The translations under genes were made by a program, and so were the position numbers. Shown in pieces: positions 41,229 through 63,180 of a DNA stretch of 64,000 nt. Numbering within the stretch: the first letter of the stretch is position 1; every line of letters begins with the position of its first letter. The stretch is from Inonotus obliquus (lineage: Eukaryota; Basidiomycota; Agaricomycetes; Hymenochaetales; Hymenochaetaceae). A model generated the notes under the pieces. That model had not been told where the DNA came from. It worked only from the letters and a program-made list of their open reading frames with translations, and ran no database searches. The stretch is from assembly GCA_032164295.1 (NCBI GenBank), contig JAJHTX010000002.1, positions 1 through 64,000 on the forward strand, in the 5' to 3' direction.

Positions 41229-43123
41229 TCACCGAGAGCAAAGCTGTCTGCAATTCCTGCACCACCATCCCTTTATCGAATAGATCGAATCCGCCAACTC
41301 ATCTTCCTGCGCAAGTGGAGACGCTAGGCTTAAATCGATCTTCCCGAAGTCTGGATCGGGGCGAAGCCCGAGAAACTGCTCGTCATATTCAAGCGAGAAA
41401 ACTTCTTCCGCGTTTATACGGAAAAAGTCAGGACAGTCAGGATAGAGGCACATCCAGCCTTGCTTGTAAATTCGAGGAGTTTCTCTTTTGCACCGAGAGC
41501 AGCAAATGTCCTGCATAAAGAAGCGTCAGTGATTAGAGTCAGGTAATGACTTTGGTGGCTCACTTTCTTCGCATGCTCGCTATTACATGTACCCCATTCA
41601 GTATCGTCATCAGATAATGGAGACAATGGAGATAATGGAGACAATGGAGATAACGGGGATAATGGAGATGAAAACTCTCCGAAAGACGTGTCGGCGCAGA
41701 AAGGCAATTCCCGATTAGAAGCTGGTATGCTCATAGTAGAATCTGGTCCATCGGAGATAGTGTCGGACACGATTGAAGAGTTTATCCACCATGGTGATGC
41801 TTGTCCTGCACAGTACTGAAAGGCAAACTTGTACTTAACACGGACATCTAATCTCCCATCGATCACAGCCACATCCCTCTCAGCTAAATCAGTTAGACCA
41901 GTCCCGATTAGTCCAAGAGTTAAAAACTCACCCCAGGCATTAACAATCCCGTATAGACCAAGGACCATGTACATTTTGTCTCCCAAGTCGAAGGGGAAAG
42001 GTGCATATCTGTTGTCTATCAGTAGCACCAGTGGATGTCGTTCTCTGTAATTATAGAGCAGCACGCGGACAGAAGTGTCTTGCTCTCGTTGTCCTTGAAA
42101 CCCCTCCAAGGACTTCCCGCCTCTTAAAAAAGTGATAGCATTAATAAGTGTGACAGTTATTTGTAAACTGCAAGTACCTGTGCGAAATGATAAGCCTGCC
42201 GTCATGGTGGAAAATGTCTCGTCTGAAGAAGAGGTTTAGGTATATGCGACACATACCTCGGGTTATCAGACTTACTGTGAAGCATACCCGCCTAACAAGT
42301 AGCCATGGGCCTTGCCGTCATTGAAATAGACGCCACCATGATAGCTTCGAAAAAAGGACGTAGTTTCGCACAGTGCTTGACGTGACTAGAATTATAGAGT
42401 CACCAGAAGGCTCAAAGAGGCGGATAAGCCTATTACGTACTGCAGCCCATATCAATGGTCGTAGCGTATCTGGTAGTAGCGGCTTCGCGCTGTTGCATGT
42501 CGGATGGCTAAAGCTGGATAATAAAATCGGCTGTCTGAAGGAGAAAACAAAGATGGAACACACTTCAGCGATGCTGCCATCTTTTCAAGCCTGGCATGGT
42601 CCTTACAACAACTTTCTTGTAAGCAGTCGGCATCGATACCATATAGCTGTTTCTTGCAGCGGCGCTGGGATTGAAGTTCATCACTCGTAACACCGTCAAC
42701 AAGAGTGTCATCCGACGAGGCTGACAAAGGCCTTAGTGCCTGCACGGGTGGCACAATATAACCATCGTGCTGCGGAAGACGAATGTCCCCAGTACGCACT
42801 CCGCTGAGTCTCTGGGAAGTCACGCGCACCACTTCAGCATTCCCCGTTGCCGCCCAGCTTAGAGGAGCGGAATTGGCGCCTCTCATTCTTGACGATAAGA
42901 AGGGATCTTTCGCCGGCGCTCCACTGCGCTTCTGAAACCTAGGTTCAGAATTTGCCTTCTTCTCTTTCTTTTTCTTCCGATTAGTGGACACGGAGTGAGA
43001 ATTGGCCAAAGAGATCTCTTCTGTGGTGTCGCAAGACAAAGCGGACACCTGCACATTAGCGGTTTGCGGGAGTTTCCGTTTCTTCTTGCCACGAGAACTC
43101 TCCGGCAGAGGGGCAGACGTCAC
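41229..43123 (-). pseudogene. AlkB/2OG-oxygenase-associated gene, N-terminal part
   Basis: A Lys/Arg-rich N-terminus (43,123-42,880, with KKKRKLPQ and RKKKKEKKAN) suggests nuclear location. A short exon with GGVYFNDGKAHGYLLGGYAS (about 42,270-42,335) is followed by a long exon (42,205-41,414). That exon contains HPLVLLIDNRYAPFPFDLGD, VLGLYGIVNAWGEF and VKYKFAFQYCAGQASPWW. Next comes a four-cysteine motif ICCSRCKR then GWMCLYPDC (41,430-41,510). In basidiomycetes these modules precede an AlkB-like 2OG-Fe(II) oxygenase domain, as far as I recall, but no catalytic HxD...H region follows. A direct repeat of GGAGATAAT-type units (41,618-41,672) gives SPLSPLSPL. It is probably truncated. Confidence 0.45.
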
Positions 43124-43299
43124 AGTATTTGCATCAGCTGTCCGTTCCCTTCACTTGCACGCTGTATTTCTGCCAAAGGTTGTAACAGAAATGCTCGCAT
43201 CGGTGAAAGCACTTAGTTGACTGTGCGAGCCTTCTGTGTTGTCGACGATGATCTATGCAAGGACGTCGTCCATTCATCACAAAAAACTGCACGATCTGA

Positions 43300-44240
43300 G
43301 AATGTAAAACCAGTACATGTAAGATAAGTTATATGTAAAATATGTAGAAGGCTTGTACATCAAATCGTCATCACATTTATTAGGGTGATATATATTGGCA
43401 ATACATACAATACTTGTCAATTTTGACAAGTATTTCAAAATATACAAGACATGGAGCCCATTAAGTCAGATTATTCAAGACATGTTATCAGATGGTAAGA
43501 TGCAAAACAATTTGTATTATACTCTCTACAGTACAGTGATATGACCACAGCACATACAATCGAAGGAAGAAAGGAAGCAGATGATGCACTGGAGCCAGGC
43601 ATCCCAAACCAAAGCACCACGTCATGCTCATTTCTGATAAGCGGGAGGTTGATCAGAAGGTTCCTTCGCAAAACATCCCACATCCTTATGAATAACCACA
43701 TTTGCACTACTCGTTCGTTGAGGCTGTATATTTAAAGCTTTTGCCGGAGGAGGCATCGGCGCCTGAGAAGGCTGAGAAGGCTGCGAATAAACAGAAGCTG
43801 AAGAAACCGTATCATTCCGTGCTAGTCTCTGCTTCTCGGATAAATATGCAAACACTGCGGCAGGTGATCCTGTAGCAGCTGTGGTAGCAGGAATATTAGT
43901 TAACGAAGGAACTAAGACGTTGCTCAAACCAGTGCTGGTTCTTTTGTTCGGAGGTGGGGCGGTAGCCGGAGCGCCTGGTGAACTAGGTCGAGGTGAGGCG
44001 GGGTGAAATCGGGCCAAGTTGATTTGCGATGAATAATGGACCTTGGGATCTCATAACGCTTGATGGACTCTCTGGATGCGAACCAGAGAGCATCACGCCT
44101 ACAAAGATTTGCAGGGTCCAAATAATCTCGCGGGCACAACCACCATGTTATGCCAATACCGATCTCGCCTGTGCTCGAGAGCAAAGAGCTAATAAGGATG
44201 AATGTCATCAATGTCTGTAACAGCAGAAGCAACATGGAAA
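43300..44240 (-). pseudogene. Unidentified gene remnant with Ser/Pro-rich tail
   Basis: The frame 44,017-43,628 encodes a Pro/Ser/Ala-rich tail (ARFHPASPRPSSPGAPATAP and on to KEPSDQPPAYQK). Upstream frames (44,235-43,924) include a hydrophobic stretch LMTFILISSLLSS. It could be the end of a membrane protein. No family recognised and the upstream exons are not resolved. Confidence 0.3.
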
Positions 44241-45810
<1,570 letters not shown>

Positions 45811-45867
45811 CTATTCCTTATGGCCACAGACCGCATACTCGGGACTACAGAAGAACATCACGTGAAT

Positions 45868-47900
45868 ATTGGACTCTTATGCGACTCTCCTCCACCTTCT
45901 CACATAACATTCTTGATAGCGGACACAGAAACAACTGTTTCTCAGAGTCACCTTCAATGCGCGGTGAAGGACCATCAAGCAGGTCTGCGGAAGAATTTGA
46001 CAGAGGCACATGGAGAGTGGTTACTGGGTGGCGCAGAAGCAGCTCAAGCATACAACGACGCAGTTGGCTGCTTGATTTGTCTCGCTCAGGACCTTAACAG
46101 GCTGAGAAGCGGCACGAAAATGTTTCTGGTGATGCTACGACAGTAAATCTGGACAGATATCAAGACAGTCTCCCTGCAGAAGGACGGCTATTGCTTACCT
46201 TACTGGGGCAGAGATACTTTCAAAAATATACTGATCGAAAACAGGATTACTCGGGTTCTTGGCGATTGCTCCGAGTATCTCAACCAAACGCTGGAGCAGG
46301 GACTGGTGCACGTGGACGAGTGTTGCACGGGCAGTCATTATGACACGCGTGACACCTTTGAGAAGGCTGTAAGTCAAAGACCATGGCAAGCAACAACCAA
46401 GTACATTTCAACAGATAATCATTCTCTGTGATTTTCTCCAGAAACCGCGTGACTCAATTCCATTCAGGATGACAGTGATAATTTGGGGGGGGGGGGGGGG
46501 GCAATCTTGCTTATGTCCTCCTGATTGAACCTGAACGAGAATTACTCTAGAGACAATGGAAGCACACGTCGAGCACTTACAATAACTGGGAGTTCCGCTT
46601 AACTAAGAGGATCCGTTTAATAGTCGTCATAGCATACGCATAACAGACGTAGTTTGTGTGAATATCTCTCTTCCGTTGTTAGCCGTGAGACTGCATCTCT
46701 TGCAGATGAGGCCATCGATGCCATCCGAGGTCGAGGCCAGAGTGCGCAATGTAGCTCGGGACGGTGGCACAAGTCCCAACATTGACACAATGAAGTAAAC
46801 ACCTGCTCCAGCTCTATCAAGAGTACGACCAGGCGACGAAGCATCCGCCCGTCTTTGCCTGATGAGAGTGAGAGGCAGAGGGCTAATTCGCGATTTAGTG
46901 CTGTTTCATCCTCTTCTTCGCATAACTCAAGTCTCAATCGGGAGGGATTACCTATGCAGCGATCTGTTGGTTCAGTGTTCACGGATGCACATGGTGGGAT
47001 AGAGGAAGATGTGGATGGGACCGTAGATTATGGTGTTGCGATCGCAAGACACCGGGGGGCATACGATCTGTCTCCGTCACCAAGCAATGTCGACGAGTTT
47101 GGCTTTTTGCTAGAGGGTCACAATGATAGAGACTTTTACGCCGAGGAGGCGGAAGCAATGTTAAACGATACTTCCATTAACGGGTCCCCGGAAGAAGAAG
47201 AGAGTGATAGCGATATCGATTTGCACACTCCGCCACCTCACATCCTGCTACGTGAGGGTGTATTATCTCCCCAATCCAAAGTAATCGCCTCCATGTCATT
47301 CGGATCCCTTAGTATGCGAAGCTCATTCATAGATATAAGAAGGGACAGCGTTGCGAGCTATGTCACCAATGGTTGGTTTAGTTGAGTATCTTTTGTAGTT
47401 TTGCGCTGACTGTGGCATGTCTTGTAGCATCATTCAGATCAGAGGTGACGAAGTCCGGCTTGTTCAAGGACGAGCGAGGTACGGATAAACGTCGCCGCCG
47501 CCACCACGATGGAAGGCTCCTGAAGGAGGCTTTGGGGCTGACGACAGGTCTTGGTTGGAGTGATGGGTACTTCGGAATCAAAGCAAGGATGAGAATGCGC
47601 TATCTCCTTTCATGAATAGAGTGAAGAGCATGACATTGTCGCCAACACAAGCATGGCTTCCTTGCGCACCTGGTCGTCAAAGTTACAATTCTTCTTGTGC
47701 TCTATGCCGACATCCGAGGCTCCTTTGAGAATCTTGTCGACCTTGTCGGAACGCCTGTCTATGCTGCCGTCTCTGGCTTCGCATGGTCCGCTGCAGAAAA
47801 GCGAGCCCCATCCTTTGTCAAAATCCTATTTGGGCGTAAATCTTGCAGGAGGAGGATCCGAGGTGCAAGGGAAGCAAAAGCAATTGATGACGAATGATAA
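45868..47900 (+). pseudogene. Unidentified gene X, copy c
   Basis: The most readable of the three copies. Blocks are LRKNLTEAHGEWLLGGAEAA and QDLNRLRSGTKMFLVMLRQ (45,985-46,146), a Ser-rich acidic central domain (46,855-47,385, with RHRGAYDLSPSPSNVDEFGF and SPEEEESDSDIDLHTPPPHI), and a basic patch DKRRRRHHDGRLLKEAL after an intron-like gap (47,487-47,535). A hydrophobic C-terminal segment ENLVDLVGTPVYAAVSGFAW lies at 47,727-47,790. This suggests a membrane-anchored or tail-anchored protein. I do not recognise the family. Stops and a 17-G run at 46,485-46,501 break the frame. Confidence 0.6.
46485..46501. repeat. 17-nt poly-G run
   Basis: At the equivalent site copy a has GGGGG and copy b has GAGGAG, so the run expanded in copy c or is an assembly or sequencing artefact. 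Confidence 0.9.
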
Positions 47901-47959
47901 CGAGCGTCGGCGCATATCGCCAACTAGCTCTAGTACCACGAGTATACCCCTTGCTATGC

Positions 47960-49300
47960 GATCGTCAATGCCTCCTGACAGAATATCTACTGTGACCAGA
48001 TGCTTACCTGAGCTGCAGTAGCGCGATTGCAGTGAGGAGAAAAACACTCTCGTCCTTTCGTTTCCACCTATCCTCTCCATGAGGATCAGATCCATATTCC
48101 TGCAACCTGACCCGAACCATCTGAGTACGACTTCCATAGCATCCTCGAATCCGTATGTGGCTGCCTGACAACACATAGTTCCCTCTGCAGTCAGACCTCT
48201 AGCCACGGTGGCTGAACTCGCATTCACAAATGACAGATCGAGGCGGACATATTCCGGAGGGTCATCCTCGAACTGCTCGCCTTCGTGCGTCCTAAGAGAA
48301 ACATTGGGAATGACGACTTCTTTCACATGCTCATTGATGGTAGTCTAGCAGTGCAGAAAAAACGAAGTGCTTAGCTGACCAGACGACCCCAATTCTCTAT
48401 CCACCACTGAGAAGATTCTATAGAGCACGAGCGACTGCCTTAACGGGACCCGAGTTCAGGATATCGATGTGTGTTTGCCTTGGCAAGCTCGAAGTGGTCT
48501 TGATCTGTAATAGCGTGCTAGTTGTAGGTTTGTCCGGATCTGTCTGTAGCTTGAGTGGATCCCATTGAAGAAATCGAATGAACATGCCATCCCCCGCACC
48601 AAAGAACTTGGCATGCGTGTCTTCGAGAGCTGGGGAGAGATCCTGGCATACAAGATCGTAGAATATATTCAGCAGCAGCACCATAGCATGCGCGACAGTC
48701 TCTGCATCCTTTTTGGGTGGTAGAGTGTTATCAATAAAGAAACATTCTGGCGGTGTAACAGAAGACTTGAAAGAATGGCTCTGCAAATTGTGACAAAACA
48801 AAGTTGATGACTGTAAATAACTCGTCTGATTGCATTTCAGATCATCATCGCCCAAAAATGGAGTGAGCAGTCTCAAGTATGGACAAGTTGACTGAATAGG
48901 CTTCAGGTGACGGATGGAGTGCATTTACAAGTTCCTTGCTGCTCGTCAGAGCTGCATACAGCCACAAGGGACGTTTAGACTAACCAGGAAATCATAGCTA
49001 GCAATGATAGCAACAGTCTCAGCAACCTAAGCACGTAGATTCTTGTCTGAAGGATTTGCCAGCAAAATCATTGCAGGTATAAGCTGGGGGCATAGCTGCT
49101 CCTTTTTGACAACCGGTATAACTGGCTCGTCCTAGGAGTGAATCAGAAAATGAATACATGCATTGACCGGTCCTAGCATGCACATCCTTCCATCTACGCT
49201 TCACGTTGTTCTTGAGATAGACACTGGCGGCTGATCGGACTGATCGATCTTGGCTTTGACTAGTGACTAATTGCAGTAACCCTGGTTGCACTGAGAGGAT
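47960..49300 (-). pseudogene. CSE1: CSE1 (exportin-2) N-terminal part, copy c
   Basis: The longest CSE1 copy. From the right it reads an importin-beta-like N-terminus QPGLLQLVTSQSQDRSVRSA then ASVYLKNNVKRRWKD (49,170-49,291), VNLSILETAHSIFG and SDELFTVINFVLSQFAEPFF (48,770-48,890), and NIFYDLVCQDLSPALEDTHA (48,610-48,670). MFIRFLQWDPLKLQTDPDKP, then VVIPNVSLRTHEGEQFEDDP and PEYVRLDLSFVNASS follow (48,220-48,320), and remnants run to about 47,980. Stops and frameshifts are numerous. It lies tail-to-tail with gene X copy c. Confidence 0.82.
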
Positions 49301-49830
49301 TGCCAGGTTCTGCTCTGCTTGCTTCCGGTTGGATTCAGAGAAGATATGAGGAGCGTAGACATGTCAGATATTGTCAAGAACAAGAGTTTGTACTCATTGT
49401 GGATGAGACAAAGCGGATGGAGCACATAGTGAACACGTCGTCCCCAGATGAGTCACGTGATAGTCAACTTCTAATGCAGGGATTTTCCTGCCACATACAC
49501 ATAATATTTTCTCAATATTTTTACATGGGTAGATGCACATTATCGAATACTTAATTTACATATCTATATCATAATTTTACGTGCAGAATTGACCGAGAAA
49601 TTGGGCATTTAGTAAGTTTTTGACCTCTGAGGGCATGATGCGCATCAAAAACATCACGTGGATTTGCCTAATTTAGAGCCCTCTGCCACTGTTCAGAAAT
49701 TCTGGACAACTAGTACTCAACAATCCAATCCGCATTAAAATTCTTTCTATTTTTGAGCTTTCACCAACTGTCTGGAAGATCCTGACAGTTTGTATGTAAT
49801 GATTTATTTTCTCTCAGCTTCATTCCAAAT
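49301..49830. other. Spacer leading into degenerate array units
   Basis: No gene. From about 49,680 diverged forms of the downstream 69-bp unit appear (CTGCCACTGTTC...TTCTGGACAA at 49,681 and CTCTCAGCTTCATTCCAAAT at 49,811-49,830). Confidence 0.4.
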
Positions 49831-49831
49831 A

Positions 49832-50035
49832 CAGGTGGGTACATTAAGTTTTCGGCCCCCCTCAAATTTGGAAGATGATCTGCATGCCTTATTGGGTAAG
49901 TAATTGAATTGAACTCAGACCTTGCTGATATGAACAGGTTACCAGAGAGCTACCCGATGCTTAAATTGCCATATAAAGTATGCAAATCTACCTTCCAAAT
50001 CTGGAGGGGGGGTGAAGACTTAATGTACCCACCTG
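49832..50035. mobile_element. 204-bp TA-flanked MITE
   Basis: Terminal inverted repeats of about 60 bp begin CAGGTGGGTACATTAAG and end with the complement ...CTTAATGTACCCACCTG. TA dinucleotides flank both sides (49,830-49,831 and 50,036-50,037), as for Tc1/mariner-type elements. It sits inside a unit of the 69-bp array. Confidence 0.8.
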
Positions 50036-50043
50036 TAGTATAC

Positions 50044-50385
50044 TGGCTGCCTCACAGGAGTGTCCCGAGATTTGGGACATGCTCTGCTCTCAATTGTATT
50101 GCAGACAATATAATGACTGCCTCACAGCAGTGTCCCGAGATTCAGGACATTCTCTGCTCTCAGCTTCATTTCAAACAATATAATAACTGCCTCACAGGAG
50201 TGTCCCGAGATTTGGGACATGCTCTGCTCTCAATTGTATTGCAGACAATATAATGACTGCCTCACAGCAGTGTCCCGAGATTCAGGACATGCTCTGCTCT
50301 CAGCTTCATTCCAAATTATAGATTGACTGTCTCACAGCAGTGTCCCAAATCTCAGGACATTCTCTGTGGTCAACTCTCTCTCTCT
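50044..50385. repeat. Five-unit 69-bp tandem array with palindromes
   Basis: Units start CTGCCTCACAGSAGTGTCCC. Two subtypes alternate: units 1 and 3 carry TGTCCCGAGATTTGGGACA with CAATTGTATTGCAGACAA, units 2 and 4 carry TGTCCCGAGATTCAGGACA with CAGCTTCATTYCAAA. They form a 138-bp higher-order repeat, and a fifth unit is diverged. Each has a dyad TGTCCC-N7-GGGACA or a weaker form. The array ends just upstream of the gene starting at 50,511. Confidence 0.85.
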
Positions 50386-50510
50386 CTACAGTCTGAGTCA
50401 ACTCCAACCTCCCTCCAGTCACTCAAGCACCTCAAATTCTACTCAAAATGTTCTAAGCCTACTTCAATTATTCCACATTTCCCTTTAACCCACTGTGGAG
50501 ACAATTGGTT

Positions 50511-51951
50511 ATGCAGTTGGATTCTCTCCAATTTATGTTTCAGCTATCTCTTCTTTGGTCCTCCTCCTTCTATGGCTTCCCTTCAGGTGTCAAAGCTCTG
50601 GTTAACTGCATCCAACATGCAATTACTTCTCCATTTAATACCTGGACAGTACCCTTCAACCTGGACCAATCCTCTTTGGCATCTGTTCTAGTTCTCTGCA
50701 GTACTGCCTCTCCTAGAATAAATTTTGATTTTGGGTATAAATCTAAAGGTAAGTATTAACTTTCCTTTTAATTTCAACTTACATTGATCATCCTACAAGG
50801 CTACAATAAAGTCTTCACAAACCATATCTATTGGGCTTTCAAGTCCTGGCTACACACTCTCCTATTTTGTAAGTCCTTTTCTTTTTTCTTTCTTTCTTAT
50901 AATTCTTAAATCTTATTCTTCAGGTTCCACAACTACTGAGCCTGCTGTCTTTACTGACAAAGTGGTTGGAGTTTATCTACTTGGTAGCTTTCTTATTTTG
51001 GCTTTCATATCTATTATATATCTTACCTATTTTCTTCTTTAGGTCAATGGCTTCAGGCCTGTCAATCTGATCTTGAAGTCTTTATCAATAACCTCTCAAT
51101 GCCAATTCCTACCTGCTACATGGGTCTAAACCACTCTTTCAAAAGGACAGATGATGAGCATCAGTGTCCTTTCTTTAGATGCAATGCCTTCAATATTGTA
51201 AGTATTATTTTAATCTTATCCTTTTTTCTTATACTTCTTGTTCTCTCTTTAGAATGCTCCTTGGAGTATCAATCTTCATCAAGCAGGCCTTCTTCATCTA
51301 CCTACTCAAGATGAGCTACTGGAGGTCACAGCTGCAGAAATTGGATGGTCCTATGTGCATGTCTTTCCAGGTGAGTCTTTACATATGTATATTCAATAAT
51401 TCAGATAATTGTAACTCTATATTTCTTAAGGCATATGCTTTCCTATGAGGATGGCAAGATGTGTTGATGCCACTGGCACCATACATGAGCTACCTTGTGT
51501 GTCTATCAGGGTACCAAATACTGTCAATACAGCAAGATTCCTTACACCCTATGATTTTCTCAACACACATATTAATCTTACTACAGATGGTCCTATTCAG
51601 GTTACTGCAGAGGAGTGCAGAGTTTTCTCAACCTGGGTAGATGCATTATATGAGCTTAGACTTATTGAAGGGGTTTTTAGGGTTCATAGAGAGCAGATTG
51701 TGATTGATGATGAGGATGATGACAAATGTAGTTGTGGTGGAGAACCTCTTTTCATTTCTTCTCTTCTTAACAGGGATGTGGATCTTGATAACCTTTCACA
51801 TGTTTTTCATTGGTTTGATCCTGAGACAGGAGCCTCAGAAGGTAACAACAATGGTTATCTTAGGCTTTTGGAAAGGATTGGATTAAACCAGGAGGCTTTA
51901 GACATTCATTTGTATCCCTTTGAACCTCTAGGTGTTGAGGAGGATGATTAA
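50511..51951 (+). CDS. Intact six-exon gene Y, unknown function
   Basis: Exons 50,511-50,748, 50,800-50,868, 50,924-50,983, 51,043-51,197, 51,253-51,370 and 51,431-51,951 join in one frame of 387 codons. All introns are GT-AG, 50-60 bp, with pyrimidine-rich 3' ends. The protein begins MQLDSLQFMFQLSLLWSSSF and has a cysteine pair region RTDDEHQCPFFRCNAFNI. It ends with an acidic segment around VIDDEDDDKCSCGG and HLYPFEPLGVEEDD. I do not recognise it. An earlier ATG at 50,448 in the same frame has TAA as its third codon, then stays open into the gene; if that TAA were read as sense, 21 codons would be added. The gene converges on the helicase (230 bp between stops) and shares its AT-rich composition, so the two probably form one unit. 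Confidence 0.75.
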
Positions 51952-51982
51952 ATTTCTAACTTCTTTCTTTTTCATACTCTAT

Positions 51983-52097
51983 ATTGTGATTCAACTCACT
52001 CCTTTCTTTGTATTGTGATTCAACTCACACTTCTCCTTATTCTGTGATTCAACTCACACTTTTCTTTATATTGTGATTCAACTCACTCTCCCCTCTC
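51983..52097. repeat. 29-bp tandem repeat between convergent genes
   Basis: Four units of TTGTGATTCAACTCAC followed by a C/T-rich 13 bp separate the stops of gene Y and the helicase gene. They may act in 3' end formation of one or both genes. Confidence 0.75.
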
Positions 52098-52180
52098 TTT
52101 CCTGCTCAATCTCTTAGTATTACCTATTGTATGGTATTTATTCTGTGCTGGAAAATTTATATGGTATTTATTAAAAAAAG

Positions 52181-55100
52181 TTACAAGCTTTGCCACTTCT
52201 GAAGAACAAATAAGAATACAAGTAAGAGATTCACATGTTGATACTCTTCTTTATGACCTAGCCACTCTACATAATCTCTCCAACTTATCTCCTTCTTCAA
52301 TCCAACATTTTGAAAATATTCCACCAAATCCTTCCAAATTTCATCATCTGCTTTGACTACAAATCCCACCATTGCAGCAATATCTTGATATAGACAGTCT
52401 GCATTAGGATCAAGTCTCTCTGAATGAGATTCTGGTCTAACTTTAGATCCAGCTTGATCTAGAGGCATCATGCACTTGTAACAGGATATGTAGCTCTTGC
52501 CTTTGACTCTAGGAATCAATTTCTTCCAGCTCCACCAAGTTGACATTCCCTTTAAGTCTGTATTTGACCTAAGTGGCTCAGCAAGAATGGTCCTCTAACA
52601 GAATGAGCAACTTCTGTTATCATCCATTGTCCTCTTCAAAGTTCCATACTTTGTATAGCATGCAGCACAGTGACCTTTAAGAAGTCTAAGTCCATAATCC
52701 ATCTGTTTAGACTGAGCCTGTTGTAGCTCTATCTTGATTTTGATGGCTGCTGCATCCACTCTAACAGAGAATGATGTATCTGTAGAGATAGACTGAAACT
52801 GTGTAGAGGTGGAGGTGGAGGTGGAGGTGGGGGGAAGTATGGAAGAGTATGGAGGAATAGAAGGAGCTACAGAGATAAGGGAGGTGGTACTAGATGATCT
52901 GATCAAAGATAAATCAGATGCCACTTCATCAGATATGTCCAACAACAAGCTAGACTTCAAGTCAACAGAAAAGAGATTTCTGTCTGACTGTTGCAGGATC
53001 AGCTTAGTAATAGCATGATCAGAACTGCAAGTCTGACAAAGTTAACTGTCTGAAATATCATGACAAGTAGGAGGAGAGCTGGTGTTGTCCATATATTTGA
53101 TGAGCTGAGCTTTAAGACACTCATGAGAGGGAGACTGAAGCTACTTTTGCAGTTGAGGAAGATATGCATCAGTGGGTACATCAGCCTGTACAGAAGGCTT
53201 GTTTGGGAGGTCCACCATAATAACTAGACATGGATAACCCTTTCTTCCTCCTTTTCCTGCTCCTTGGATAAAGTCCACCATGTCATAGGGAGAACCTAAA
53301 AAAATAATGCATTGCACAAAATCTTCATCAAGGCCCTGTAATAAGGAGCTAGTTGCAGCAATCCAAGGTCCCTTTTCCTTCCACTCTGCCATCTCCAAAG
53401 ACTGAATGTCATTTCCCAATGATGCATGGTACTTTGAACAATCTAGCATGGATGATAGATTATTGGCATATGTCTTGTTGTTACAAAAGATAATGCCCTT
53501 CATCTTTCTTCTTCCCTTCTCCTTTTCTTAATCAAATAGATATTTGTTGATTAACTGGACTAGATGTACAGTAGAGGAGAGAATGTCATTGTCTCTGGCA
53601 GTTGAAAAGGAGATCTTGAAAAATCTGAGCTGTTTCATCAGAGTAGGCTCCTTGATGATGTAAAGAGTGGATGGTTTGTTGGTTAAGGTCCAGAGCTGAT
53701 GCACCATCTCCTTGGTCATAGTAGCTGAGATGAACACTTTAGGAACAGGAAATTTGAAGCACTTGTTGAACTGTGCTAATCTGGGCCTAAACTTGCTGTG
53801 GATAAAGTATGTATGAACCTCATCAAAGAAGATCATGCTGATGTTGTCTTCATTGAGCTCTATCCAACTATAAAAGGAAAAAATAGTTAAGTATAATGTT
53901 TAGAAACTATTTATAAGCAAACATACTCAGCAAAGTTCTCAACACCTATAATATCTCCACTAACTAGCACCAGCTGAGTATTTGGCTTGACTCCTGAAGA
54001 ATTGGTCCAGTAATCCACTTGGATACCCTTGGCTTTGGCTCTCTCCTCCATTTGCTTCAGCAAGATAATAAAGGGAGCTGCAACAACTGTCATCTTCCCT
54101 TTATGAAGAGTAGCACAGAGATAGAACAAAAGACTCTTTCCTGCTCCAGTTGGCATCTTTACTAGTGCATTGCCCAGTCTCTTGAGAATAAGAAGCATGC
54201 CCAGCTTTTGTCCTTCACATGTCCATTCTACACTTGATAACCCAATGTGTTCTCTAACCTTTCCAAGAAGGAACCTAAGAGTTTTCTCCTCATCATGCTT
54301 GGTAACTGGAAATGTAGTTTTGATATGAGAAGGAAGTTTGGCTTCTATAAAATGATTTGCCTCTGGAGAGATGAGACTGTATACCATAGGAGATAAAGAA
54401 GAGTTATCTATATAACTATTATTAGCATATGAATAATTGTTAAAGATATATTCTCATACCTTCCATCCTAGTCTTCTTAACTAGTTTCATGCTACTGGCA
54501 GTTGCTGATCTGTTCCTCTTGGGAATTGGAGTGTTGATAATAATAGTAGATGGATTGGAGTGGAGTGGAGTATTAAGTGAGGATGATTGTTCAGCATAAT
54601 CTATAGAGAAAGTGGAATGAGAATCAGGGGGCACTCTTGAGATAAGAGGATCATGATGTGCACTTGAAGCTGGTATGGATGATGTTGACTGAGAGATATT
54701 GATTTGAGCACCAATCTTTTGAATTTGCTCTTGTAGCAGTTGAAGAGTAGAGAGTACTGAAGTTTGAAACTGACTGGACTCAACCTTCATCTCTTAGATA
54801 ATATGAGCTGTAGATTGAGCAGTCTGCTTCTCTATGATCTTCTCCATCTTCTTCTCCAAGCCAACAAATTGAATACACATTTCAGAATGAACTTTGGTAA
54901 TAATGTTCTCTGTTGCATCTTCAAATATGTATCCTGGAGCAGATTGATGTAGACTGGTAGGTGAAGGAACAGATTGAAGATGGATAGTTGAGGTGATAGG
55001 AGGAAGATCATAGATATTGGTGTCTCTGATAAAGGTTTCTGGTGGATTGTTGGCAGAAAAGAGAGGGTTGGTTTTTCTCAAAGGAAGAGGGGGAGTCATT

Positions 55101-58100
55101 CCATCTAGTCCAAGAAACTCAATGAACTTGATAGAGAATTGAATGAAACAGTAGAGAGTCTCCAAGTTCAGATTGGTCATATCTTGCTTGGTCAAGCCAT
55201 AGTTTCTATTAGCTGTAAGAGAACTATGACCTGCCTGATTGTCCCCAGCATCCTCCCAACTGCTCTTTTTGAGATAGATTAGTAGAATGTACTCCTTCTT
55301 GATAGCAGATATCAACTGTCTCCAACTGGCCACCCCTCCCTTAAACTCTATGTATTTCCACATAAAGTTTTTGAAAGTGTCTCTGAACAGCTGGGCTGAC
55401 ATCCTATGTCCATAGAGAGTATAAAGATAGAAGTGATAGTTTTTGGCCTCTGTCTCTCCATGTAGAACATATGCAATCACAGTTTCTAATGGTCTAACTA
55501 CAATGAGGTAGTAGTCCAAAAGTCTGGCTAGGCATTTAGGAAGTTTGTGGGGAAGGTAGGAGTCAAAGCCCTTGACATTAGAGGTTTTGGTGTAGCAGGT
55601 GATAAGTAAGGTCTCTCCATGATCTTTGTAGATGGCTCTATTCCTTTCTGTGTTTCTGATTCTTTGGTCAATGACCTCAGTAGTACGCATGGGCTAGCCT
55701 GATGTGATCTGGTTGAGACAGGAGAATAATTTGGCCACTTCACTACACTTTTCAAGAAAAGAAAGAGCCTTAGAAGGATCAACTTCTATTTTTCCTTGAA
55801 AATTCCTTCTCAAAAGCTTGCAGCTTGAGTTGGATGTGAGATGTTGTAGAAGGGCATGTGGGGGAGTAAAGGATGTGTTAAGGAAGGAGGCTGCATAGTT
55901 GGTGTTGGCCATGTCCTCTGAGTATGTAGGTTCCATAGCATAAGTTAACCAGTGGCCACCAGAAATATCCAAGAGTCTTTCCTCCAGCTCCTGTAAAGCT
56001 TGCTTGATTCCTAACCTCAGCTTCTCCAATATCAGATTTCTTCCTTTATAGGCAATCTCTGTAAGAGTGGAGTTCCATGACATCCTAGCCTCTGTTCTAG
56101 AGCAGAACACAATAGTGCTCATATAGGTGCTTATAGAACAAATGCCTGCATAGCTGGTATTAAACTCTGCATTCAACCATATACTGCAATAATGTGCAGC
56201 ACAGCTGTAAATTATATAAGTATCTCAATAAGATACAGAGTAACAAGATGCTGACTTACTCATCAAAGTTTCCAATAAACTTAATCTGGTTCTCACACTC
56301 CATAAAGATGATATTTTTAAAGAGATACTTGCAGGTAGCCAAATGAGGAGTAATATCATCTGGTTTGCTGAAGCCTTTCTCTATTTTCATAAAGAGACCA
56401 GCAAGGAAGATTTGCCATGGACAATAAGCTCTGCCTTTCATAATCTCTTCTTTGGATGTAGTGACCAAAGCAAAGCATATGTTGTGTAAGGCTTGAATAT
56501 TATCATGGTCTCTAAAGAATAAAAGATAAGCTTATTAGTAAATTTGTCCAAGTAAACAAAATTCCAAATTTAACTTACTGCTGCAGTACTTCCCATGCCT
56601 TTATACAAGTATCCTTTTGCTCCTTGGTAAGTCCTATCTGATACTCCTTCTCCTTAGCAGTAAGTGAATGAATGGCCAACTTGACAAATCTAGCCAAAAG
56701 TTGACTGTAATCTTCAAGTGTCTCTATGTTGTGAATAACATTCCAGATGGAATTAATCTCTCTATATATATTATTAGCATCCTTCTTTAGCCAAAATTAA
56801 AAAAAGAAATATAACTCACATTGGCCAATTTTGAAAAGGTCTTAAAGAGCTATACATCTTCACACTAGCCATGTCCTTCACTTGAATAAGATACATGAGA
56901 CAAGTATGCCTCAAGAAGAATAGAGGATCATTGAGCTTGGGAAACTCTAGAATCTTCTTGATCTTCTCTCTTTCCTCCATGCTGTTATACCAATCTTTTA
57001 AGATAAGATGCCACTGGGTCATATTGATGTATGGGGGGAGGTCTCTATCATGTGTAGTAGAGATTGGAACATCAGAGAACGAAGGCATGTGCTGTAAAAC
57101 ATTTTGGCTGAAGTCCTTGAAAATGCTGCTTGTAGGATTGCATGATTAAATATCTTGAATAGGAAAAAGTGGAAGAAAGGAGTAAAATCTTTGAGCCTTG
57201 CAGCTACTGTCTTTGATATTGGCAGGCAGCTTAGGATGTTTGTCTTTGATATGTTTTAGCATGACTTTTTGTGTGAGGGTGGTATAATGACATGAGGAAT
57301 GAGGGCAATAAATGGCATTGAAGATGGCTAGTCCTTGAATAGGAGTTGAGAAGGGCAAGGGAGTTGCAGGTAGCTCTAAGGAGAGATGCTCATCCTGTAG
57401 AAAGATACAATATAACTTTGCATCCTTTAATCTACAACCTAAGCCTTTAACCCTCTCCTTCAGCTGAGGATGTTTTTTGCTCATGTGTCCCCAGATAAAC
57501 TCTGGCTTGAGTCCAATCTGACATGATTTGCACATAGCCCATCTGAGCTCTGAATGAACATGAATGTCCATGGCTCTAAGAATAGGTGTACTCCAAAAAC
57601 ATCCATCATGCTGGATAGTTTGCAAATTAAGCAAAGAAGCCTGGTCTTGATCCTGGTCTTAATTCTCAATGTCCATAGATCCATCAGAGTCACCAGAGTC
57701 ACTAGAGTTACCAGAGTCATCAGAGTCACCAGAGTTACCAGAGTCACCAGAGCTAACATCCTTCTCAACATCAGCATCAACATCAGACCCCAAGATCCCA
57801 CTTTCTCCTTCAACTTCTTCCATCTCTATCTCTGCCCATTGCTCTCTAACTTCAAACTCTGCCTCCTCATCTTCCATGTCAACTGCATCCTGCTCTTTGA
57901 ATGGTTGATTAAGTTTGGTAAAAAGAGCATCCATGTCTAATTCTCTCTCATTGAAGGTTTCAAGAGATTGATGTGAGGCTGATAAATGTGAGGATGATTG
58001 TTGATTGGAAGATTGAGTGATAGGAGTAGATGCAGAATGAGAGTGAGTCTGGGCTAAAAAGACTATTTCTTGATCTAGTATTGTTGGACTTGCAAGAGCT

Positions 58101-58529
58101 TGACAGGATGGAACAGATGATAGAACATCTAAATAAAGAAAGCCACAACTGCCTTTAATAAAATCATCTTATAAAATTACAGCATATCTGACTCACCTGA
58201 AACTGACATCTCATCCAGCCTTTCCACTTCCATTCCTACTCCTCCTTCATGAACCTTCTTCCAATAATCCAAAAAGATATCCTTGTTTGTATGAGAGAAG
58301 TTGCATCCTTCTTGAGAACAGTTGAGAGATCCAAGCTGCCCAGCAGATCTATAAATAGTCTGACATGTACCATCTAGCAGATTAGAATTAGAAAGAAATA
58401 AGTAAATCTATCTGACTTGGAAGAGAGAGAAATTTACATACTTGAAGAGATTAGATTTAGCTTAAGTCCATGGTACTTTCTTTTATGAGTACTGAGAGAT
58501 TTAGAAGTAGAAAAAGTCTGTTGAGACAT
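52181..58529 (-). CDS. Giant RecQ-type helicase gene with eight in-frame TAA/TAG codons
   Basis: Eight exons (58,529-58,442; 58,373-58,197; 58,128-56,820; 56,761-56,579; 56,511-56,260; 56,204-54,460; 54,362-53,927; 53,867-52,181) with GT-AG introns total 5,877 nt, exactly 1,959 codons. Order: C2H2-like fingers (CSQEGCNFSHTNK, codons 50-90), an acidic region with a GDSGNSGD repeat, two more Cys/His fingers, a large domain like that of telomere-type RecQ proteins (PMRTTEV, then AGHSSLTANRNY near codon 1,020), a Gln-rich coiled coil, and the helicase. The helicase has Walker A MPTGAGKSLLFYL (about 1,325), FFDEVH (about 1,410), SATMT, GIIFCNNK and motif VI QGAGKGGRKG (about 1,605), where RecQ usually has GRGGR. 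The C-terminus has Cys pairs. In-frame stops: codons 245, 416, 840, 1,140, 1,510, 1,639, 1,672, 1,821. The frame is otherwise perfect. Whether it is expressed is unknown; DNA unwinding and mobility or telomere roles are inference. Confidence 0.75.
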
Positions 58530-58845
58530 GCTGCAGCTTTGAATGGAGCAGGTGAGTCTAAAAAACAGACAAGAGAGAGTCAGTCAATATTTATTTTTTT
58601 TAAAAATAATAGAAACTTTATTAACCTTGGTTTTGACTGAGCAGACATTGTTCTTGATAATGAGCAAGAGATAACAGTGTGAGTGTGTCTGAGATAGTGA
58701 GTATGAGAGGTAAACAGGAGGAGTAGAGTGGGGTGAAATTTTCAGTTTCAGTGACAAAGTCACATTGGGATAGTAACAAAGTCACATTGGGGAGGAGAGA
58801 TCATACTAAGAAGATCTAGACTATTCTTACTAATAAGGAGGTTCC
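58530..58845. other. 5' flank of the helicase gene
   Basis: No other gene. A short direct repeat (ACAAAGTCACATTGGG at about 58,754 and 58,779) lies about 240 bp upstream of the start. No canonical TATA element could be chosen with confidence. Confidence 0.4.
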
Positions 58846-59344
58846 AAGACTGATGGGGGGGGGGGGGACCCCATCATCTTGGCTGATGGGTGGAGGTAAG
58901 TCTAGCATAGCTTTGGGTCCTTTCCTTTTTGGGGCCCTCCTCCCATCAGACTATTTCTTTTTTAGGAGGGACCCCAACACTCTTGGCTGATGGGGGGGGG
59001 TCCAGCTTTCCCACACAGAGAATGGCCCCCAGCACAAGAACCGATGGTCGGAATTGGGCGAGAGAGGTACTGTTGAAAAGGCAAACCTAGGGGCTTTCCC
59101 ATGGAGAGAAGAACCCAAAAGTTCCCACGGGTGGAATCTTGACCAAGATTCCAGCAGGAATATATATAGAGTCATGCCATATCTAGAAAGCTAGAAGGCG
59201 AGAACAAGCAGCACTTGTCATCATCTCCATTGTCGTTAATACCTTGTTTTATCAATCAAACTCCCTGTTTGCTGTTGCATAGGGAAAGTAGTATAAGAAG
59301 ATCATTGTGCATTGTTTAACTCCAACGGACCCGATTCCTAACAA
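58846..59344. mobile_element. LTR-like fragment with G-tracts
   Basis: It begins among G-runs (13 G at about 58,855 and 9 G at about 58,983), each next to TCTTGGCTGATGGG or its relative. It carries a TATATATAGA box at about 59,159 and ends GGACCCGATTCCTAACA, typical of an LTR terminus. The left end and target duplication were not identified. Confidence 0.45.
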
Positions 59345-59568
59345 TACAATTGAATGTGCACTACTGCCATGTACATTTATGAGATGAAAGACACAGTACT
59401 AGTCATTGAAACAATAAAAATGTATGTTGCAATACTTTTTTACTTACTGTACATCGACTGGTAATGAGTCTAGTGTTTTCTGAGTCTAAGAGGAATCTAC
59501 TTGTGTGATCGAATCGAGCATTTTTCAACGACTGCACCCAATTTCGGTGCAACCATCAGTGATAATTA

Positions 59569-60651
59569 CAGAGAAATTCATAAAAATCTGGACACGTGCC
59601 AAATTGCCAATTTCGGCCCCTTCAGTACCTCAGAACACAAAATAAATCATATCTCACTCAATTCTTGACCGTTTCGTGTTCTCTAAGTTTCTAAATTCAT
59701 GCCCCGATCGTGCCGTCCGAACTGTAACAAACCCGAGCAAATTCGGGCAAGAATTGACCCCGAAACGGCGCAAAATGTCGTTTTTTCATGTATTCCTCAT
59801 GTCCATTTTTTCCTGCACTCAATTCTGGGTCTGCAGCACCCACAAGTGTCTCAGAATGCTCAGATGGAATAGCTGTGAATTTAGGGCCTGCATTTGAGAT
59901 GAATTTGAAGATGTATGTGCCAGTCTGGGGGCATGCCTGGAAGGCAGAAATGCCCCCTCATCCCTCAAGCTCCCCATGCCCTAGAAAAAATATTTGAAGC
60001 CAAATTCATGCATAGGAACTCATTTAGAGTGTATTTAAATGTATCTGAGCCTTTCCCAGATCAAATGGATATGTTGGGAAGCTGGGGAAAGGCAGGGAAG
60101 CATGGTGCATATGCCCTGTCTCCCCCACCTCAAACAATGCACCAATCCTCATAGCAGACATGAGAAGTACTCAGATAACTTTCAATAGGCCTGGAATGAA
60201 TTTTCATGTATGAATTTGGCTTCAGATATTTTTTCTAGGGCATGGGGAGCTTGAGGGATGAGGGGGCATTTCTGCCTTCCAGGCATGCCCCCAGACTGGC
60301 ACATACATCTTCAAATTCATCTCAAATGCAGGCCCTAAATTCACAGCTATTCCATCTGAGCATTCTGAGACACTTGTGGGTGCTGCAGACCCAGAATTGA
60401 GTGCAGGAAAAAATGGACATGAGGAATACATGAAAAAACGACATTTTGCGCCGTTTCGGGGTCAATTCTTGCCCGAATTTGCTCGGGTTTGTTACAGTTC
60501 GGACGGCACGATCGGGGCATGAATTTAGAAACTTAGAGGACACGAAACGGTCAAGAATTGAGTGAGATATGATTTATTTTGTGTTCTGAGGTACTGAAGG
60601 GGCCGAAATTGGCAATTTGGCACGTGTCCAGATTTTTATGAATTTCCCTGT
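59569..60651. mobile_element. 1.08-kb fold-back element with 446-bp arms
   Basis: The left arm (59,569-60,014) and right arm (60,206-60,651) are inverted copies differing at only a few bases (for example A/G at 59,572). A 191-bp loop separates them. The ends CAG(A/G)GAAATTCATAAAAATC are flanked by TA on both sides (59,567-59,568 and 60,652-60,653). The pattern is that of a TA-targeting non-autonomous element with very long inverted repeats. Each arm contains the same 73-codon open frame, which is a mirror artefact, and no transposase. Confidence 0.85.
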
Positions 60652-60845
60652 AACGTGGCCAGCCTGGAAGATCTCCGAATTTACAAACCTTTCGGGTTAC
60701 CATCCACCAAATATCCGTCCAATCATTGTAGATTTGATTATAATCTGCCAGAACGTACTCGTAGTCGAATTACTATTTATACAGGGTCGGGATAGGAATT
60801 CAGAGGATGTGATCGGGAGCAAATATCAGAAAATTGATCGAAATG

Positions 60846-63180
60846 TTATAGTCGTGTCCACCCTTCTCCCTCAGGAAGCTTCAGGTTGTCCCTTTGTGTC
60901 AAGCATTCCTTCGCATCTTCGCCACGAGTGCGTCCAAGAGAATGACCGCCTTCGACATTTTCGTCGTCGTCCTGATCCGTTGTTGGTGTTAGATCCATGT
61001 CACCATCGTCACCCGTATTATTCTGCGACACTAGTCGATCTCCTCCTTCACCAGCCAAATGATAATCACGTCCATTCGGCAAGAAGCCGCGTCGAGGAGC
61101 AAGAAATCCAGCTTCTGCTTTGAAGCGAGCACGGGTGATGGCGGGTTGGGCTCTCTGCTGAAAAGCGCTGAACGTTCGTTGAAACGATGCAAATGCGTTC
61201 GGTTCCCTATCCAAGTCCTTGTCTCTATTCCTCTCCTTGTCCGTACCGCGATGCTCGAAGCGCGCGGCTATGCTACTGACAGCACCGCCAGTCCCTTCAC
61301 CGTCCCCGCGTCGTATGCTAAACGTATTTGCAAATGGTGATGTCCCATCGACGTCGGCATCCGCTCTATGGTCGGGATCCAGCAATCGCGGGCGTGATGC
61401 AAATTGCGCACTCTCGGGGCGTTTACGCTGAGCAAGGAATGGCGCTCCGGAATCCGAGGGCTGAGAAAAAGTTGAAGGAGAAGGGGGCTGGCGCAGGCTC
61501 TGAGAACGAGTGGGACGCACTTGTGGCGAAGAAACCGTAGAAGGTAACGGGGAAGGCAAAGAGGATTGATGAAGTTCATCACAGAACCCGGCAGTAGATA
61601 CGGATTTGTTGATAGATGAGGCACCACCCGAACCCGAAGGAGTATACTGAGAGTTGTAGGTCTGAAAAGATGGGGAACGAAGGTGACGAGAGCGACTAGA
61701 AGAATGGACGCTCGGTCTTCGCGCGGGATGCGTAGGAGGAGGGGAAAACTGTTCTGCAGAGGTATGCGCACATTTCGAAGTCGAGTGCTCCTCGTCGGAG
61801 GGAGATGGGGAAAGGTCGCGTGATTCCGATCGAGATTGTATGTTTAACCGCGTTAGTTGTGCACTCGCAACTTCCTCAAGACTTGCGACGCTGGGAGCAC
61901 CAGAATCCGATTTTGCAATAGGAATGTGTGTTGCACGAGGAGGCTGTGGTACAGGTCTCCGAGCGCCCTTTTCTGGACTGGAGCTTTGTGTTCGTCCGCG
62001 GTCTTTGCTTAGATTGCGAGGTACCAAAATATCTGACGAAGAACGGATGACCTCCAGAACACGCGTGCGCCCTGCTTCTTCTTGAGCACGTTTGAGAGAT
62101 GCGCCAACACGCGATGCAAGAAGCGATTGCTGCATCAACGGTGTCACACGATGAGGCGGAATAGGAGGGGGCGAGGAGTCCTTCATAGACGACGAGGAGC
62201 TCGAGACTGAGTTGCTGGAAGTGGCCGGATGCGAAGGAACGGTATATGGAGGTTTTGCGGGCAATGGCGGAGGCCTTGGTGAAATACTCGACGAAGATAT
62301 GTGAGCCGGTTTGCGCGGGGGGAGTGGTGGGGTACGTCCCGATCCAGAGTTAGGCTCGTATGTTCCCGAATGGGTTTTAGCGCGCTGAAGGAACGGATTT
62401 GTTGAGCCTGGTGGCACACCAACGCCAGCAGCGCGGGGCTTGGACAATGTGGGATGACCAGAGGGAGTAGAAGAAAGTGATGCTCGCCGAGGTGAGTCAG
62501 CGTCTATATGGTTCGAAGGTTTTGGTGTAGCAGCGTCAGGTTGATAAACAGAAGAGTTACTACCAAAGAAAGGATTCAGGTGTGCGGATTCGAACTTGGG
62601 TGATGAAGGAGGAGCATCCATAGTCGGGGGTTCGAGTTCGAAGACGGATCTGACATTTGTAGAGTTTGCAGGATGACGAGGAACTATGGGGGACGATGGT
62701 TCGGCTGTGAACATGGGGAAGAATTAGCACTCTTTTGCCATTGGGCAGGTCATCACAGATACACACCTTGAATGAAAACACTTCCCTCATATATTTCCCC
62801 TCCACGTCGAGCGTGCATTAAGAGACGCAATGCAGCAAGAAGCTGGCCACCAGACATTTCATTCTGTGGCATCTGAAGGACGAATAGATGCAAAACCTTA
62901 GACGAGAGCGACTATTTTAGTGGACGGACGCGAGGATGCTGTATGAGACTGGAAAATTCACCTTGTCAATCTCTGAAGATCCAAGATCTCTGAACCGGCC
63001 CTTCATCCAAGCTCGAACGACGGGAAGGGCTACCTTCTTGTTTTCCAGCTCGTCGTCCGAGATGCGCATGGACGGCTTATCAACGTCGTCGAGAATATCA
63101 CGCAAAGCTTGGACATATTCGCTATATTCGGCATCTGAGAGGGCTGAGAGATGGAGGAATAAGCTTCGCTTGGGCGGCAT
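60846..63180 (-). CDS. Conserved-looking fungal protein with NPF motifs
   Basis: Three exons (63,180-62,962; 62,896-62,767; 62,704-60,846) give 736 codons in one frame with GT-AG introns. The N-terminus, SLFLHLSALSDAEYSEYVQA to VVRAWMKGRFRDLGSSEIDK, is helical; exon 2 has MSGGQLLAALRLLMHARRGG, an EH/EF-hand-like helix pattern. The long remainder is Ser/Pro-rich and disordered, with NPF motifs (LNPFFGS, TNPFLQR) that bind EH domains, and poly-Pro runs (PPLPPRKP, PPPLPAKP) that bind SH3 domains. It ends in LPEGEGWTRL. The composition suggests an endocytic or cortical actin adaptor. This is an inference from motifs; I do not know a named orthologue. It is the first clearly host-like intact gene, with GC-rich codon use. 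Confidence 0.8.

What the first reader, a model, noticed from the sequence alone, without database searches (positions are those of the whole stretch)
52181..58529. A 1,959-codon helicase frame with eight TAA/TAG codons, no TGA and no frameshift
Splicing eight exons at GT-AG sites gives exactly 1,959 codons. Inside are five TAA (57,659; 57,146; 54,794; 53,528; 53,042) and three TAG (55,694; 53,141; 52,595), all in register. No indel or TGA breaks the frame, whereas pseudogenes elsewhere in this window shift frame every 100-300 bp. Every site is one C-to-T change from CAA/CAG, and the contexts suit Gln, for example IEN-stop-DQDQDQ and CSFC-stop-RTIL. The gene may use UAR as sense (readthrough or a suppressor tRNA), or C-to-T mutation may have struck Gln codons only.
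Basis: partly seen in the sequence, partly recalled or inferred. Interest (0 to 1): 0.88.

Follow-up and report, generated by a model that had tools for sequence, protein, structure and literature searches.

The report
Decayed duplicate of a fungal helicase
A mushroom's helicase gene near a chromosome end carries eight premature stop signals because it, like the one sister copy found, is dead and decaying by ordinary C-to-T mutation, not because the fungus reads stop codons as an amino acid; the odder fact is that the gene has almost no CG pairs.

Summary
In detail: eight exons, 1,959 codons, five TAA, three TAG, no TGA, no frameshift. The recoding reading does not. One sister copy was found in the genome, on contig C12, 97.9% identical. 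It reads Gln at six of the eight sites and Trp at two, and is itself broken by four other stops (two TGA) and two frameshifts. In ten distant homologues the column of one Trp-derived stop is Tyr or Phe in 10 of 10. The mix of coding changes fits neutral C-to-T decay: 12 stops against 9.7 expected, 23 silent against 28.4. A conserved gene 2 kb away ends in TAA where four homologues end. 'One C-to-T step from CAA/CAG' is true of any TAA or TAG.

What it is: an OrsD plus RecQ-type helicase pseudogene, probably of a hymenochaetalean mushroom, duplicated inside a segment of at least 16 kb. Unexpected: about 8.8 kb around it holds 2 CpG where 338 are expected. This loss predates the duplication, yet the frame was then still open, so the gene seems to have worked while CpG was being erased. 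A tyrosine-recombinase-like motif set lies between OrsD and helicase; unconfirmed.

The parts
50277..59041 (.). CpG-void block: 2 CpG in 8,765 bp against 338 expected from base composition; holds the helicase gene and a small ORF on the + strand
   Evidence: edges chosen by the lack of CpG itself
52181..58529 (-). OrsD + RecQ-type helicase pseudogene, 8 exons, 1,959 codons, eight internal stops
57233..57559 (-). OrsD domain (PF12013)
   Evidence: Pfam E 2.5e-11; genome search
54794..55693 (-). Open stretch with tyrosine-recombinase-like motif set (R, K, R, Y invariant in 11 of 11 aligned sequences); fold not confirmed
   Evidence: no Pfam integrase match; low-confidence model
53141..54453 (-). 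RecQ-type SF2 helicase core (DEAD in 53911-54453 and 53528-53899, Helicase_C in 53141-53527)
   Evidence: core of the model of homologue P0026 matches RECQL5
57659..57661 (-). in-frame TAA; Gln codon in the sister
57146..57148 (-). in-frame TAA; Gln codon in the sister
55694..55696 (-). in-frame TAG; Gln codon in the sister, Gln in 4 of 10 homologues
54794..54796 (-). in-frame TAA; Gln codon in the sister
53528..53530 (-). in-frame TAA; Gln codon in the sister
53141..53143 (-). in-frame TAG; Trp codon in the sister, Tyr or Phe in 10 of 10 homologues
53042..53044 (-). in-frame TAA; Gln codon in the sister, Gln in 1 of 10 homologues
52595..52597 (-). in-frame TAG; Trp codon in the sister; no Trp in the (poorly aligned) homologue column
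51430..51951 (+). 173-codon open stretch of unknown family inside the block; open here, one in-frame TAG in the sister copy
42911..59175 (.). segmental duplication shared (inverted, in several aligned pieces) with C12:1810520-1826500; the left end was not reached
42911..49810 (.). CpG-bearing flank of the duplication; 20.8% of its CpG cytosines differ by C/T between the copies

Best explanation
The eight TAA/TAG codons are nonsense mutations in a dead duplicate gene. An OrsD plus RecQ-type helicase gene was copied between contigs C2 and C12 as part of a segmental duplication of at least 16 kb (shown). Since then both copies have decayed independently, mainly by C:G-to-T:A transitions on both strands, with no detectable selection on the protein (shown by the pair comparison; direction C to T inferred). 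TAA and TAG arise because CAA, CAG and TGG are the frequent targets; TGA is scarce because CGA codons were already absent and only TGG can give it. The transitions are most likely spontaneous or methylation-linked cytosine deamination acting on repeated or subtelomeric DNA (inferred): CpG cytosines in the flank of the same duplication changed about six-fold (odds) more often than other cytosines. The helicase block had lost nearly all CpG before the duplication, so its later changes fall mostly on CpA and CpC.
For: One sister copy found, sense at all eight sites: six Gln codons and two Trp codons; sister broken by 2 TAG, 2 TGA and two frameshifting gaps elsewhere, where the window is sense and in frame. 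141 transitions to 15 transversions in 8,214 sites; hits on both strands (41 and 32 in the window copy, 32 and 30 in the sister). Coding classes fit neutral decay: window 8 stops (5.6 expected), 16 silent (16.3 expected); sister 4 (4.1) and 7 (12.1, p = 0.095). Exons are hit at least as densely as DNA of the block outside the gene: transitions at 108 of 5,877 against 24 of 1,511 bases. Homologue columns: aromatic in 10 of 10 at 53,141; Gln in 4 of 10 at 55,694. TAA ends the gene at 60,846 where four of four homologues compared end.
Against: No RNA, protein or methylation data. The direction of change is inferred from two copies only, and the context rates come from the same pair. Pooled silent changes (23 of 108) fit neutrality, but the unweighted test gave a slight nonsynonymous excess (85 of 108, p = 0.029). 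Introns show fewer transitions than exons (3 of 472). The 52,595 column has no Trp in ten homologues, but is poorly aligned. Nuclear tRNA-Gln genes were not recovered, so a suppressor tRNA was not excluded directly. CpC is hit three times as often in the block as in the flank (7.4% against 2.4%, p = 2e-5); unexplained.
Confidence: 0.95

Rival explanations
1. UAA and UAG are read as glutamine in this gene (suppressor tRNA or programmed readthrough), so the protein is made whole.
For: The window frame has no TGA and no indel; six of eight sites are Gln codons in the sister.
Against: Two of eight sites are Trp codons in the sister, one of them aromatic in 10 of 10 homologues; the sister carries TGA stops and frameshifts; no purifying selection; TAA is a terminator 2 kb away; the stops are not shared by the two copies.
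Confidence: 0.01
2. Repeat-induced point mutation in the strict sense (a RID-dependent premeiotic process with CpA preference) hit both copies.
For: All eight window stops lie in CpA context, sense or antisense (codons). CpA changes exceed CpT changes in the block (64 of 1,222 against 25 of 1,363, p = 2e-6) and, after removing TG/CA double hits, in the flank (42 of 1,048 against 16 of 906, p = 0.005). Both copies are hit on both strands.
Against: CpG, not CpA, is the leading context in the flank (140 of 673); CpC is as high as CpA in the block; retroelement pairs of this genome show no CpA excess (549 of 33,927 against CpT 1,063 of 35,717; pairs not independent). Only about 2% divergence. [quoted passage not shown]
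Confidence: 0.15
3. Adenosine-to-inosine editing of the messenger turns the stops into Trp codons, as I recall (no call) for sexual-stage genes of some ascomycetes.
For: Two TAG stops stand where the sister has Trp.
Against: Six of eight sites are Gln codons in the sister, five are TAA; both copies carry unrelated stops; no selection on the protein.
Confidence: 0.01
4. More introns than modelled remove some stops.
For: Acceptor choice is free at introns 3 and 6.
Against: Homologues align across the stops at 55,694, 53,141 and 53,042 without a gap in that column; the sister is sense at all eight sites.
Confidence: 0.02

Closest known systems
Telomere-linked / subtelomeric RecQ-like helicases of fungi (UTASa/UTASb of Ustilago maydis, PMC10532341; RecQ helicases of Agaricus bisporus var. 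burnettii, PMC7473861; passages seen)
   Same: RecQ-type helicase core; OrsD domain reported for UTASb; near chromosome ends; several copies, some truncated
   Different: Here 52 kb from the telomere, and 100-108 kb from a contig end in the sister; two copies found, both dead; CpG-void. PMC7473861 states that no domain but the helicase core was found in the subtelomeric ones
C-to-T inactivation of repeats in basidiomycetes (CpG signature, Masc2-type methyltransferase, PMC4352252; Rhizoctonia solani AG8, PMC4014442; passages seen)
   Same: Transition excess, CpG the leading context in the flank, nonsense mutations as a result
   Different: The block itself had almost no CpG left, so its stops come from CpA and are TAA/TAG rather than TGA
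Repeat-induced point mutation of ascomycetes
   Same: C-to-T on both strands of duplicated DNA, CAA/CAG/TGG to stops
   Different: Low divergence, CpG leading in the flank, CpC raised in the block; no CpA excess in retroelement pairs
Tyrosine recombinases (Cryptons, Starship captains; comparison recalled, papers seen only as listings)
   Same: Conserved R, K, R, (H/R) and Y in order in the middle domain
   Different: No Pfam or PDB profile match and no confident fold; fused to OrsD and RecQ

Membership tests
UAR-as-Gln recoded gene | Stop positions are Gln in relatives | tested here: not met
   Sister: 6 Gln, 2 Trp of 8. Homologues (10): 53,141 Tyr/Phe in 10; 55,694 Gln in 4; 53,042 Gln in 1; 52,595 Gln in 1, gap in 1; 57,146 no Gln, gaps in 2; the other three columns are gaps in all ten
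UAR-as-Gln recoded gene | Purifying selection on the read-through protein | tested here: not met
   Silent 23 of 108 against 28.4 expected without selection
UAR-as-Gln recoded gene | Suppressor tRNA with CTA or TTA anticodon | tested here: inconclusive
   None named in 30 tRNA loci of the 63 matches scored among 1,410 candidates; in 11 of the 30 loci one AT-rich tRNA had an anticodon that ARAGORN could not resolve; the only tRNA-Gln (ttg) lay in an AT-rich, probably mitochondrial locus; pattern searches gave no nuclear tRNA-Gln as positive control
UAR-as-Gln recoded gene | TAA/TAG not used as terminators (for a genome-wide code) | tested here: not met
   Frame at 60,846-62,723 ends in TAA where P0002-P0005 end (4 of 4 compared, of 16 hits)
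Pseudogene | Disabling lesions not shared with a homologous copy, and loss of constraint | tested here: met
   8 stops in the window, 4 stops and 2 frameshifts in the sister, none shared; neutral class counts
OrsD-RecQ / telomere-linked helicase family | OrsD domain | tested here: met
   PF12013 E 2.5e-11, 44.5 bits, cut-off 26.6
OrsD-RecQ / telomere-linked helicase family | RecQ-type SF2 helicase core | tested here: met
OrsD-RecQ / telomere-linked helicase family | Position next to telomere repeats | tested here: inconclusive
   52 kb from telomere repeats at window 2-159; sister 100-108 kb from the end of C12
Repeat-induced point mutation (RIP) | C-to-T with dominant CpA context in repeats | tested here: inconclusive
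   CpA above CpT in block and flank, but CpG leads in the flank and retroelement pairs lack the CpA excess
Repeat-induced point mutation (RIP) | RID/Masc1 methyltransferase | not tested
   PF00145 gives 5 matches in the genome; they were not classified
Methylation-linked CpG decay | Raised C-to-T at CpG | tested here: met
   140 of 673 CpG cytosines against 112 of 2,670 others in the flank, before removal of double hits
Methylation-linked CpG decay | Cytosine methylation of the locus | not testable with these tools
   No methylation data
Tyrosine recombinase | R-K-R-(H/R)-Y residues in order (pattern recalled) | tested here: met
   R824, K857, R946, Y986 invariant in 11 of 11; the H position is not invariant
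Tyrosine recombinase | Fold or profile match to known recombinases | tested here: inconclusive
   No integrase family in Pfam for 9 members, one weak recombinase-like helix-turn-helix match at E 0.28; none in PDB by profile; model mean pLDDT 43.5, no useful match

The most novel reading that the evidence does not exclude
Before its duplication this was a working gene or mobile element, with OrsD, a tyrosine-recombinase-like domain and a RecQ helicase in one protein, that had lived so long under CpG-directed mutation that it lost essentially every CpG (Arg almost only AGA/AGG) while keeping a frame of about 1,950 codons open: a coding element shaped by, and resistant to, the host's CpG mutator, which then arrived in CpG-bearing DNA shortly before the segmental duplication.
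Probability: 0.35. Interest if true: 0.55.

Novelty: new member of a known kind. Interest (0 to 1): 0.28.

Why it matters
As a claim of stop-codon reassignment it would be striking, so it is useful to show that one sister copy settles it. What remains is a clean natural record of how C-to-T decay kills a CpG-free gene (mostly TAA/TAG rather than TGA), and a coding block with almost no CpG in a genome whose 30 sampled retroelement loci keep CpG ratios of 0.63 to 1.19. If the block worked in that state, it is a test case for how genes or elements survive long exposure to CpG mutation in mushrooms.

Tried and rejected
Suppressor tRNA: two pattern searches (no hit; eleven hits, all with two mismatches, against fifteen for the reversed control) and 30 ARAGORN-scanned loci gave no nuclear tRNA-Gln, so the test had no positive control. 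Window scan for tRNA: 0 genes.

Homologues in named fungi: the full-length search found one protein, the core-region search nine more; none bears a fungal name. One scan of viral contigs gave a single distant helicase locus, L072, not analysed. Terminal inverted repeats framing the block: none convincing among the 25 longest of 90 pairs shown.

CpA signature as proof of RIP: in the flank 19 TG/CA double pairs (both copies of one CpG hit on opposite strands) had inflated CpA from 42 to 80; corrected before use.

PDB profile and Pfam searches gave nothing of use.

Literature: ten searches; (repeat-induced point mutation with Hymenochaetales) returned no paper. Passages were seen of PMC7473861, PMC4352252, PMC10532341, PMC10799480 (58, hits in the reference list only) and PMC4014442; the rest are listings. 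In the listings I saw no title about an OrsD-recombinase-RecQ protein; this is not proof of absence.

The CpG probability should not be taken literally, as the block edges were chosen by CpG absence.
Full report
What was checked. The window is the start of contig C2 of a 36.07 Mb assembly in 30 contigs, with telomere repeats at 2-159. A frame at 60,846-62,723 is 64% identical to a protein of Sanghuangporus sanghuang and 54% to one of Fomitiporia mediterranea, both Hymenochaetaceae, Hymenochaetales; the organism is therefore most likely a hymenochaetalean mushroom (inference).

What the gene is. Its open pieces match OrsD (PF12013), DEAD (PF00270) and Helicase_C (PF00271); the Helicase_C piece matches helicase Q5 (RECQL5) best among solved structures. 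Ten distant homologues from unnamed source records were found. By the precomputed Pfam listings DEAD is in 10 of 10, OrsD in 8 of 10 (not P0018, P0026) and Helicase_C in 7 of 10 (not P0019, P0021, P0023). The model of one of them, P0026, matches RecQ helicases in its core. Ustilago UTASb is reported to carry an OrsD domain and UTASa a RecQ-like helicase domain (PMC10532341, passages), and subtelomeric RecQ helicases occur in Agaricus bisporus var. burnettii (PMC7473861, passages). So this belongs with the subtelomeric OrsD-RecQ helicases of fungi, though it lies 52 kb from the telomere.

The decisive comparison. DNA and protein searches of the own genome found one further copy, on C12 (the tool calls its counts lower bounds). 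It is 97.9% identical over about 8.2 kb. At the eight stops the sister has six Gln codons and two Trp codons (at 53,141 and 52,595). The sister has four stops of its own (two TAG, two TGA) and two frameshifting gaps in the exons. No lesion is shared. In an alignment with the ten homologues the 53,141 column is Tyr or Phe in 10 of 10; the 55,694 column is Gln in 4, Ser in 4, Pro in 1 and Ala in 1; the 53,042 column has Gln in 1 of 10; the 52,595 column has Gln in 1, no Trp and one gap and is poorly aligned; the 57,146 column has no Gln and two gaps; the 57,659, 54,794 and 53,528 columns are gaps in all ten. This alignment used a 1,932-residue variant of the model that differs only at the acceptors of introns 3 and 6.

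Selection. Taking T as derived at each transition, the window copy carries 38 missense, 16 silent and 8 nonsense changes and the sister 35, 7 and 4. With context rates measured on the same pair, neutral decay predicts 5.6 and 4.1 stops and 16.3 and 12.1 silent changes. The number of stops needs no special cause. TGA should make up about a quarter of new stops; none of 8 has P = 0.10, and so few as 2 of 12 over both copies has P = 0.39. Without context weights there is a slight nonsynonymous excess (85 of 108, p = 0.029) and 12 stops of 108 have p = 0.085. Exons are hit as densely as block DNA outside the gene, introns less (108 of 5,877; 24 of 1,511; 3 of 472).

Stop codons work here. The frame at 60,846-62,723 ends in TAA at the same residue as the four homologues compared (P0002-P0005 of 16 hits). 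A nuclear suppressor tRNA was not excluded directly, as no nuclear tRNA-Gln was recovered.

The mutation pattern. Block (50,646-58,864): 141 transitions, 15 transversions in 8,214 sites, 3 gap openings. Flank of the same duplication (42,911-49,810): 252 transitions, 25 transversions in 6,890 sites. Non-CpG transitions per site are alike, 0.0168 and 0.0163, as expected of one duplication. In the flank 140 of 673 CpG cytosines differ against 42 of 1,048 CpA, 16 of 678 CpC and 16 of 906 CpT after removal of double hits; in the block 64 of 1,222 CpA, 49 of 666 CpC, 25 of 1,363 CpT and 3 of 6 CpG. Retroelement pairs in this genome (80 pairs at 93-99% identity from 30 loci, not independent) show CpG 6.7%, CpT 3.0%, CpC 2.8%, CpA 1.6%. 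CpG-led C-to-T decay agrees with reports for basidiomycetes (PMC4352252; PMC4014442; passages), the latter noting that the few basidiomycete studies lack the CpA bias of RIP. The CpA excess over CpT in this duplication and the CpC excess in the block are not explained; polarity is inferred, not shown.

The CpG void. From 50,277 to 59,041 there are 2 CpG where base composition predicts 338; the sister is alike. Sampled retroelement loci (30 of the 150 matches listed) have CpG ratios of 0.63 to 1.19. The 2-kb bins of the window outside 50,001-60,000 range from 0.38 to 1.10; the bin 58,001-60,000, which straddles the block edge, has 0.32. Arg codons in the window copy: 1 CGN against 62 AGA/AGG; in the neighbouring frame 46 CGN against 10 AGA/AGG. 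If CpG had been lost after the duplication, TG facing CA between the copies would be common: there are 0 such pairs in the block and 19 in the flank. So the block was CpG-void before it was copied. Yet taking the C-bearing letter at each difference leaves no internal stop, so the frame was still open then. The simplest reading is long residence, as a working gene or element, under CpG-directed mutation; arrival from a CpG-poor genome is the alternative. Flanking DNA is CpG-bearing and has been losing CpG since the duplication, so the block probably came into this neighbourhood not long before the duplication (inference).

A further lead. Between OrsD and helicase the aligned proteins share R824, K857, R946 and Y986 in 11 of 11, in a pattern that I recall from tyrosine recombinases (GHSSLT...Y in the window). 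No profile or fold search confirmed this. It is a lead only.

Verdict. Observation confirmed; recoding not supported; ordinary pseudogene with an unusual CpG history.

Noticed in passing
50277-59041: Nearly complete absence of CpG (2 against 338 expected) in a block that held an open frame of about 1,950 codons before duplication
   Followed up: yes
54794-55693: Middle domain with R, K, R, (H/R), Y in the order of tyrosine recombinases, fused to OrsD and RecQ
   Followed up: partly
1-159: Telomere repeat with a 12-bp period in which TTAGGG alternates with TTAGGC
   Followed up: no
59566-60653: Self-inverted repeat of about 1.09 kb, 92% identical, with 660 bp without CpG at its centre
   Followed up: no
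46001-48672: Diverged copies (75-91% identity) between 18,145 and 22,702 of the same window
   Followed up: no
50039-50366: 70-bp tandem repeat array (140-bp higher-order unit) at the left edge of the CpG-void block, with CpG at 70-bp spacing
   Followed up: no
50646-58864: CpC transitions three times as frequent as in the flank of the same duplication (49 of 666 against 16 of 678); unexplained
   Followed up: partly
51430-51951: Open stretch of 173 codons on the + strand, no Pfam match, broken by one TAG in the sister
   Followed up: partly
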